DNA from: Candidatus Eremiobacteraceae bacterium
GTDB taxonomy: Bacteria; Vulcanimicrobiota; Vulcanimicrobiia; Eremiobacterales; Eremiobacteraceae
Direction: 5' to 3'
DNA length: 40,485 nt
Assembly (NCBI GenBank): GCA_035314825.1
Contig: DATFYX010000087.1
Coordinates: forward strand, 1 to 40,485
Position numbers and translations under genes: made by a program. The notes below the pieces were generated by a model. The model saw only the letters and a program-made list of their open reading frames with translations. It searched no databases and was not told the origin of the DNA. This document shows positions 21,068 through 21,369 of this stretch, piece by piece (position 1 is the first letter of the stretch; every line of letters starts with the position of its first letter).

Positions 21068-21369
21068 GGGATGATGGTGGAATCGGAAGACACAACGGAC
21101 TTCCAATTGGAGCCGTAGGATGGGAAACCGCCTGCGGGATGCGCTCAAAGTCGGTGGACTCTTCGCCGGAGTGAACGGCATGACGACGCCGAGCCAAGCC
21201 CCGCGTACGGGGAAGGTGTAGAGACTGGACGGGCGCGGCCTACGTCGTGAGCGTCACGATATGGTCAAGGCACAGTCCGGACCACGAACGCGATGCGGTG
21301 GCGAAAGCCATGGTGGTGCGAAAATCCGTTGCCCGAAAGGGCGTCCGGGTTCGAGTCCCGGTCATCCCA
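21068..21369 (+). tRNA. tRNA-Leu(UAA), split by a group I intron
   Basis: Exon 1 is 21068-21102 and exon 2 is 21321-21369; spliced length is 84 nt. Every arm pairs. The acceptor is GGGATGA with TCATCCC (21362-21368), with A73 at 21369. The D stem is GTG/CAC. The anticodon stem is ACGGA (21095-21099) with TCCGT (21325-21329), around loop C-T-T|A-A-A-A. The long variable arm GCCC-GAAA-GGGC marks a leucine tRNA, and the T arm is CCGGG-TTCGAGT-CCCGG. The anticodon is U34 (21102), A35, A36, so UAA. CCA is not encoded. Exon 2 overlaps the opposite-strand ppx stop by 8 bp. Confidence 0.93.
21103..21320 (+). ncRNA. Group I intron in the tRNA-Leu(UAA) anticodon loop
   Basis: The 218-nt insert lies between U34 and A35, the site used by cyanobacterial and plastid tRNA-Leu introns. 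It ends in G (21320), the required omega-G. P1 forms between exon CTT plus the first intron C and internal guide GGAG (21109-21112), putting the exon's last U in a U-G wobble at the 5' splice site. The core is recognisable: GCCGAGCCAAGCC (Q-like, about 21188-21200), hairpin CCCCG-CGTA-CGGGG (21199-21212), GTGTAGAGACTGGACGG (R-like, 21216-21232) and CACAGTCC (S-like, 21271-21278). GACT/AGTC gives P7, and TGGC-GAAA-GCCA (21299-21310) is a GNRA-capped P9 hairpin. It has no ORF and resembles the IC3 type. Confidence 0.9.

What the first reader, a model, noticed from the sequence alone, without database searches (positions are those of the whole stretch)
21068..21369. tRNA-Leu(UAA) gene split by a self-splicing-type group I intron
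All tRNA arms pair only after removing 21103-21320. The insert sits after U34, ends in G, pairs with exon 1 through a P1 helix with the U-G wobble, and contains recognisable Q, R and S elements, P7 and a GNRA-capped P9 hairpin. This is the arrangement long known from cyanobacterial and plastid tRNA-Leu(UAA). It appears here in a genome whose neighbourhood is not cyanobacterial. The 5'-exon-side C-G pair in P1 where cyanobacteria have A-U suggests compensatory evolution rather than recent identical transfer.
Basis: partly seen in the sequence, partly recalled or inferred. Interest (0 to 1): 0.92.

Follow-up and report, generated by a model that had tools for sequence, protein, structure and literature searches.

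The report
Self-splicing intron in a tRNA-Leu gene

Summary
Confirmed. Window 21068-21102 + 21321-21369 form a canonical tRNA-Leu(UAA) only after removal of 21103-21320, and this is the only UUA-reading tRNA found in the 97%-complete genome. Exact joints are shown by intron-less orthologues at the same locus in the same class, including a syntenic pair of congeners. The 218-nt insert has P1-P9, the invariant U-G at the 5' splice site, R and S segments and a terminal G. Its helices covary strongly over 57 relatives (0 of 500 shuffles). A covariance model built only from other phyla and phages finds it (100.6 bits, E 9e-24). Rfam's RF00028 and ARAGORN miss it; RF00028 scores sister copies at 30-45 bits, below its cut-off, so 'no Rfam hit' reflects sensitivity. 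The 'cyanobacteria and plastids only' framing is out of date: I found the same intron site in about 50 Vulcanimicrobiota genomes, many Alphaproteobacteria, Beta- and Gammaproteobacteria, Acidobacteriota, Bacteroidota, one Chloroflexota MAG and 84 phage contigs. Vulcanimicrobiota copies are one clade (100/99) that follows host families: old vertical inheritance with repeated losses. The nearest outside relative is a huge-phage intron with an HNH endonuclease frame. Splicing is inferred, not shown.

The parts
21068..21102 (+). 5' exon of tRNA-Leu(UAA), nucleotides 1-34 (ends at U34)
   Evidence: splice and fold; intron-less orthologues
21103..21320 (+). group I intron, 218 nt, no room for an endonuclease gene; last base is the terminal G
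   Evidence: covariation, held-out covariance model, relatives
21321..21369 (+). 3' exon of tRNA-Leu(UAA), A35 to A73; CCA not encoded
21100..21112 (+). P1: exon C-U-U (21100-21102) pairs with intron G-A-G (21110-21112); U-G at the 5' splice site invariant in 57/57
21113..21137 (+). P2 hairpin (all 10 pairs with changes on both sides; 79% of cells paired)
21141..21146 (+). P3 5' strand GCGCUC, pairs with 21231-21236 GGGCGC
   Evidence: 100% of cells paired, 4 of 6 pairs compensatory
21151..21156 (+). P4 5' strand UCGGUG, pairs with 21187-21192 CGCCGA
21160..21183 (+). P5 region hairpin (single-sequence fold only)
21193..21217 (+). P6 (GCC/GGU) and P6a hairpin
21215..21233 (+). R segment GGUGUAGAGACUGGACGGG (guanosine-binding region)
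   Evidence: conserved in all relatives
21223..21227 (+). P7 5' strand GACUG, pairs with 21273-21277 CAGUC (pseudoknot with P3)
   Evidence: 100% of cells paired; last pair GC, AU or UA across 57 sequences
21231..21236 (+). P3 3' strand GGGCGC
21237..21266 (+). P8
21267..21278 (+). S segment AAGGCACAGUCC with P7 3' strand
21281..21317 (+). P9 stem with GAAA-capped hairpin 21298-21311

Best explanation
This is a functional tRNA-Leu(UAA) gene interrupted after U34 by a small, endonuclease-free group I intron of the tRNA-intron type (IC3-like, close to the Azoarcus type in its core). After transcription, the exon end CUU docks on the intron's GAG as P1; a guanosine bound in P7 attacks after U34; the freed exon then attacks after the terminal G at 21320; the joined tRNA is processed and CCA is added. 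Shown here: anatomy, exact boundaries, covariation, sole UUA decoder found in the genome, one clade in the phylum. Inferred: that splicing happens, that it needs only RNA and guanosine, and that the intron entered an ancestor of this class from a pool shared with phages, then passed down vertically and was lost many times.
For: Spliced tRNA-Leu(taa). Other tRNA-Leu genes found in the genome read CAA, UAG, GAG and CAG; no second UAA. Covariation: 41 of 60 pairs with double changes, 667 double-change cells vs 243 in shuffles, 0/500 shuffles as high, slid controls collapse. Held-out model from other phyla and phages: a single match in the window, 100.6 bits, E 8.7e-24. Empty site in a congener: L350 (no intron) and L351 (intron at 51-270) share exons and about 3.7 kb of flank. 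Vulcanimicrobiota introns one clade 100/100 and 100/99, following family (1 change) and genus (24 changes, minimum 23, shuffled 37). Nearest outside relative is a tRNA-Leu intron of huge phage LR756511 with an HNH-like open reading frame next to P6.
Against: No splicing data. Rfam RF00028 does not reach threshold on this copy. The assembly is a fragmented MAG in which several other tRNAs are not found, so a second tRNA-Leu(UAA) in a gap cannot be fully excluded. Host-to-intron congruence was judged from group codes, not from a host tree. No sigma-70-like promoter was found just upstream, although host promoters may differ.
Confidence: 0.93

Rival explanations
1. The insert is inert and the gene is a broken tRNA; UUA is read by another tRNA or hardly used.
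For: UUA is very rare: 8 of 8058 codons in 22 genes of the window. RF00028 misses the copy.
Against: All core helices and both exons are intact and under pairing constraint; no other UAA anticodon was found; the same gene is kept intact with or without the intron across the class.
Confidence: 0.03
2. Recent transfer of the cyanobacterial or plastid tRNA-Leu intron into this genome.
For: Same gene and same insertion site as reported for cyanobacteria (PMC4476775, PMC4033280).
Against: The copy sits inside a fully supported Vulcanimicrobiota clade that follows host families; its core is nearest to a phage and Azoarcus-type branch. Cyanobacterial sequences could not be fetched.
Confidence: 0.02
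3. Contig contamination or misbinning: the tRNA belongs to another organism.
For: The genome is a fragmented MAG (89 contigs).
Against: Two other genomes of the same genus and four of the same family carry the same intron at 78-86% identity in this gene; exons match the class-specific tRNA.
Confidence: 0.01

Closest known systems
Azoarcus tRNA-Ile(CAU) group I intron (Reinhold-Hurek and Shub 1992; Tanner and Cech 1996, cited in PMC4033280)
   Same: Small, endonuclease-free, anticodon-loop insertion, same R and S segments, P7 and P9 GAAA; the tree puts the Vulcanimicrobiota clade on the same side as the Ile type. The Azoarcus sequence was written from memory but falls among close phage copies fetched here (L361, L367).
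   Different: Other tRNA and other position in the anticodon loop; different P1 and 3' end.
Cyanobacterial and plastid tRNA-Leu(UAA) intron (trnL intron)
   Same: Same gene, same site after U34, same exon sequence CUU|AAAA (cyanobacterial side from established knowledge and PMC4033280).
   Different: Descent from one ancestor could not be tested: no cyanobacterial contig was fetchable, and the Anabaena sequence written from memory fell on a very long branch.
Alphaproteobacterial, acidobacterial and bacteroidete tRNA-Leu(UAA) introns found here (L225-L342)
   Same: Same gene, site and core.
   Different: A separate group with other P2/P3 signatures (GAGTGC...GTAGAAC versus GAGCCG...GGGATGCGCTC).
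Phage tRNA-Leu(UAA) introns (LR756511, L176, 84 IMG/VR contigs)
   Same: Same gene and site; LR756511 shares the P2/P3 signature GGGATGCGCTCAAA...GGGCGC with the window copy and is its nearest outside relative.
   Different: LR756511 and L183 carry HNH-like open reading frames; the window copy has none.

Membership tests
Group I intron | P7 and P3 pseudoknotted core with R and S segments | tested here: met
   P3 and P7 100% of cells paired, compensatory changes in both
Group I intron | U at the end of exon 1 in a U-G pair of P1 | tested here: met
   UG 57/57
Group I intron | Terminal G at the 3' end of the intron | tested here: met
   G at 21320; G before AAAAT in all aligned relatives
Group I intron | Score over the cut-off of Rfam RF00028 (a detection statistic, not a biological criterion) | tested here: not met
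   No hit; sister copies 30-45 bits, cut-off 50. The held-out model R2 gives 100.6 bits
Group I intron | Guanosine-dependent self-splicing | not testable with these tools
   needs RNA experiments
Group I intron subgroup IC3 (tRNA type) | Short tRNA intron, R segment GTGTAGAGACT-N-GACGG, GNRA-capped P9 | tested here: met
Group I intron subgroup IC3 (tRNA type) | Tertiary contacts such as L9/P5 and L2/P8 | not tested
tRNA-Leu(UAA) intron of cyanobacteria and plastids | Same gene and insertion after U34 | tested here: met
tRNA-Leu(UAA) intron of cyanobacteria and plastids | Common descent with cyanobacterial copies | tested here: inconclusive
   no cyanobacterial contig available; recalled Anabaena sequence on a 1.86 branch

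The most novel reading that the evidence does not exclude
The tRNA-Leu(UAA) intron, usually treated as an immobile cyanobacterial and plastid heirloom, belongs to a wide family that circulates through phage-borne tRNA genes with HNH homing endonucleases and has seeded several bacterial phyla separately, including the ancestor of this Vulcanimicrobiota class.
Probability: 0.4. Interest if true: 0.72.

Novelty: new member of a known kind. Interest (0 to 1): 0.45.

Why it matters
It adds the phylum Vulcanimicrobiota to the hosts of tRNA-Leu(UAA) introns and shows that standard tools miss this copy, so tRNA counts in such genomes lack one gene that looks essential. More broadly, the distribution found here (several phyla plus phages, with HNH-like frames in two phage copies) bears on the old question of whether the first-known bacterial intron is an ancient vertical trait or a mobile one. 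In papers I could read, bacterial tRNA introns are listed for cyanobacteria and a few alpha- and beta-proteobacteria (PMC4033280), and none was known in phage tRNA genes in 2014 (PMC3984707); most subscription papers were not searchable, so priority is not established.

Tried and rejected
Rfam at gathering score and at E 1 on 601 bases: no RF00028 hit; explained by model sensitivity. ARAGORN with introns allowed: finds the gene outline but misplaces the intron and names it tRNA-Trp. Surveys centred on L318 and L251 failed because a genome handle is needed. Attempts to get cyanobacterial copies: plasmid search with a recalled Anabaena sequence and a viral pattern scan gave nothing. Three classic papers on cyanobacterial introns are not held. 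Literature searches for tRNA-Leu introns in Proteobacteria, Acidobacteria or Vulcanimicrobiota found no report in the open library. Considered and rejected: archaeal-type (protein-spliced) tRNA intron, because the insert is after U34 and has a full ribozyme core; split or trans-spliced tRNA, because both halves lie in order 218 nt apart; a homing endonuclease in the window intron, because 218 nt leave no room.

Full report
OBSERVATION. The two exons 21068-21102 and 21321-21369 join into a standard tRNA-Leu(UAA) once 21103-21320 is taken out. ARAGORN finds no tRNA in the window as it stands; with introns allowed it finds the same outline but misplaces the intron. Rfam gives no group I hit on this copy, even at E 1 on 601 bases.

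BOUNDARIES FROM NATURE. Of 149 genomes of the phylum, 88 have a BLAST match to the gene; about 50 of these hold the intron (46 fully extracted, plus partial ones), and at least 30 have an intact tRNA-Leu(UAA) without it, with the exon matches (query 9-43 and 262-310) lying side by side in many. The cleanest case is two species of one genus: L350 (no intron) and L351 (intron at 51-270) match on both exons and over about 3.7 kb of neighbouring sequence. Similar pairs exist in two more genera (L356/L357, L353/L354). The insert is therefore a discrete, precisely gained or lost unit.

STRUCTURE. With the P7 strands held open, energy folding alone gives P2, P3, P4, P5, P6, P6a, P8 and P9. P7 is GACUG (21223-21227) with CAGUC (21273-21277). 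On a MAFFT alignment of 57 introns (window phylum, Proteobacteria, Acidobacteriota, Bacteroidota, phages) made without reference to structure, 93.2% of cells pair, 41 of 60 pairs show changes on both sides, and no shuffle of 500 reaches any of the five measures; sliding the partners drops pairing to 31-39%. The U-G pair at the 5' splice site is present in 57 of 57. The shuffle control does not remove shared ancestry; the slid control keeps it and agrees.

HELD-OUT TEST. A covariance model built from 28 introns of other phyla and phages only (A3, R2) was run on the whole window: one match, 21135-21286 +, 100.6 bits, E 8.7e-24. RF00028 itself scores sister copies at the same tRNA site in four genomes at 30.4-44.6 bits, under its cut-off of 50. 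The missing Rfam hit is a limit of one broad model.

IS THERE ANOTHER tRNA-Leu(UAA)? Forty tRNAs pass in the genome (2.55 Mb, 89 contigs, 97% complete). Those read by ARAGORN include tRNA-Leu CAA, UAG, GAG and CAG, no other UAA. Some other tRNAs (for example Tyr, Thr-UGU, Gly-UCC, Arg-CCU) were not found, so the list is not complete. UUA is rare here: 8 of 8058 codons in 22 genes of the window, which would make slow splicing cheap (inference).

HOST. Named contigs with the same intron are labelled Candidatus Eremiobacterota or Vulcanimicrobiota (L234, L278, L294, L298), and the contig lengths of L278 and L294 equal those of G045:C6 and G027:C19 in the window's class. The host is thus a Vulcanimicrobiota (Eremiobacterota, WPS-2) bacterium; this step is inference from relatives.

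DISTRIBUTION. Over all collections 191 loci could be resolved into exons and intron: 189 are split tRNA-Leu(UAA) and two read CAA. Named hosts: mostly Alphaproteobacteria (Caulobacter, Phenylobacterium, Rhodobacteraceae, Bradyrhizobium, Sphingomonas, Zymomonas and others), also Beta- and Gammaproteobacteria, Acidobacteriota, Bacteroidota and one Chloroflexota MAG. In an even sample of Alphaproteobacteria 40 of 289 genomes have a model hit, tRNA identity not checked. In IMG/VR 84 contigs match.

EVOLUTION. In two trees the Vulcanimicrobiota introns are one clade (100/100; 100/99). Inside it, family codes change once and genus codes 24 times (minimum 23, shuffled mean 37). That is what vertical descent with losses predicts. 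The nearest outside row is the tRNA-Leu intron of the 595-kb phage LR756511, which has the same P2/P3 signature and an HNH-like open reading frame in a 512-nt insert next to P6; then phage L176 and the Azoarcus-type introns of CAU tRNAs, also seen in phages. The proteobacterial tRNA-Leu introns form another group. The core is only about 200 columns, bootstrap values had not fully settled, and base composition differs between rows, so deep order is provisional. Cyanobacterial copies could not be included except one sequence from memory, which fell on a very long branch; that comparison is open.

MECHANISM. From established group I chemistry: P1 docks, an exogenous guanosine in P7 attacks after U34, exon 1 attacks after G21320, the exons ligate. 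All required parts are present and constrained; the reaction itself is untested.

VERDICT. Real, correctly placed and correctly named. A new host phylum for a known kind of intron. The wider distribution, including phage copies with endonuclease frames, is the more interesting part.

Noticed in passing
L343:3881-4190 (pCTX-M3, NC_004464.2, beside tmrB and aac(3)-IId); 1269 PLSDB plasmid records: Plasmids of Enterobacteriaceae and Acinetobacter carry, unannotated next to aac(3)-IId, a complete tRNA-Leu(UAA) gene split by a 213-nt group I intron of the alphaproteobacterial clade. It may mark the chromosomal source of this gene block. Only one record was read through.
   Followed up: partly
IMG/VR loci L141-L224; LR756511 (L359), LR756501 (L360): Phage-borne tRNA-Leu(UAA) genes with group I introns of about 200 nt; L183 and LR756511 have HNH-like open reading frames inside the intron. 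A 2014 review knew no phage tRNA introns (PMC3984707).
   Followed up: partly
L361, L364-L367, L369, L370 (IMG/VR): Phage contigs with Azoarcus-type introns in a tRNA with anticodon CAU.
   Followed up: no
L041, L043, L044 (G011, G012, G002): Sister genomes of the window's family have a second intron of this type, in a CAU tRNA that looks like initiator tRNA, between U33 and C34; two are about 650 nt long.
   Followed up: partly
G000:C82:28291-28547 (L129:2292-2548), also C82:29168-29464: The window's own genome has a group I intron inside its 23S rRNA gene (62 bits) and a weaker second hit.
   Followed up: partly
G000 whole genome: Several tRNAs were not found (Tyr-GUA, Thr-UGU, Thr-GGU, Gly-UCC, Gln-UUG, Arg-CCU): assembly gaps or further split genes; model R1 finds no second such intron.
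   Followed up: partly
L308, L331: Two proteobacterial MAGs in which the intron sits in a tRNA-Leu that reads as CAA instead of UAA.
   Followed up: no
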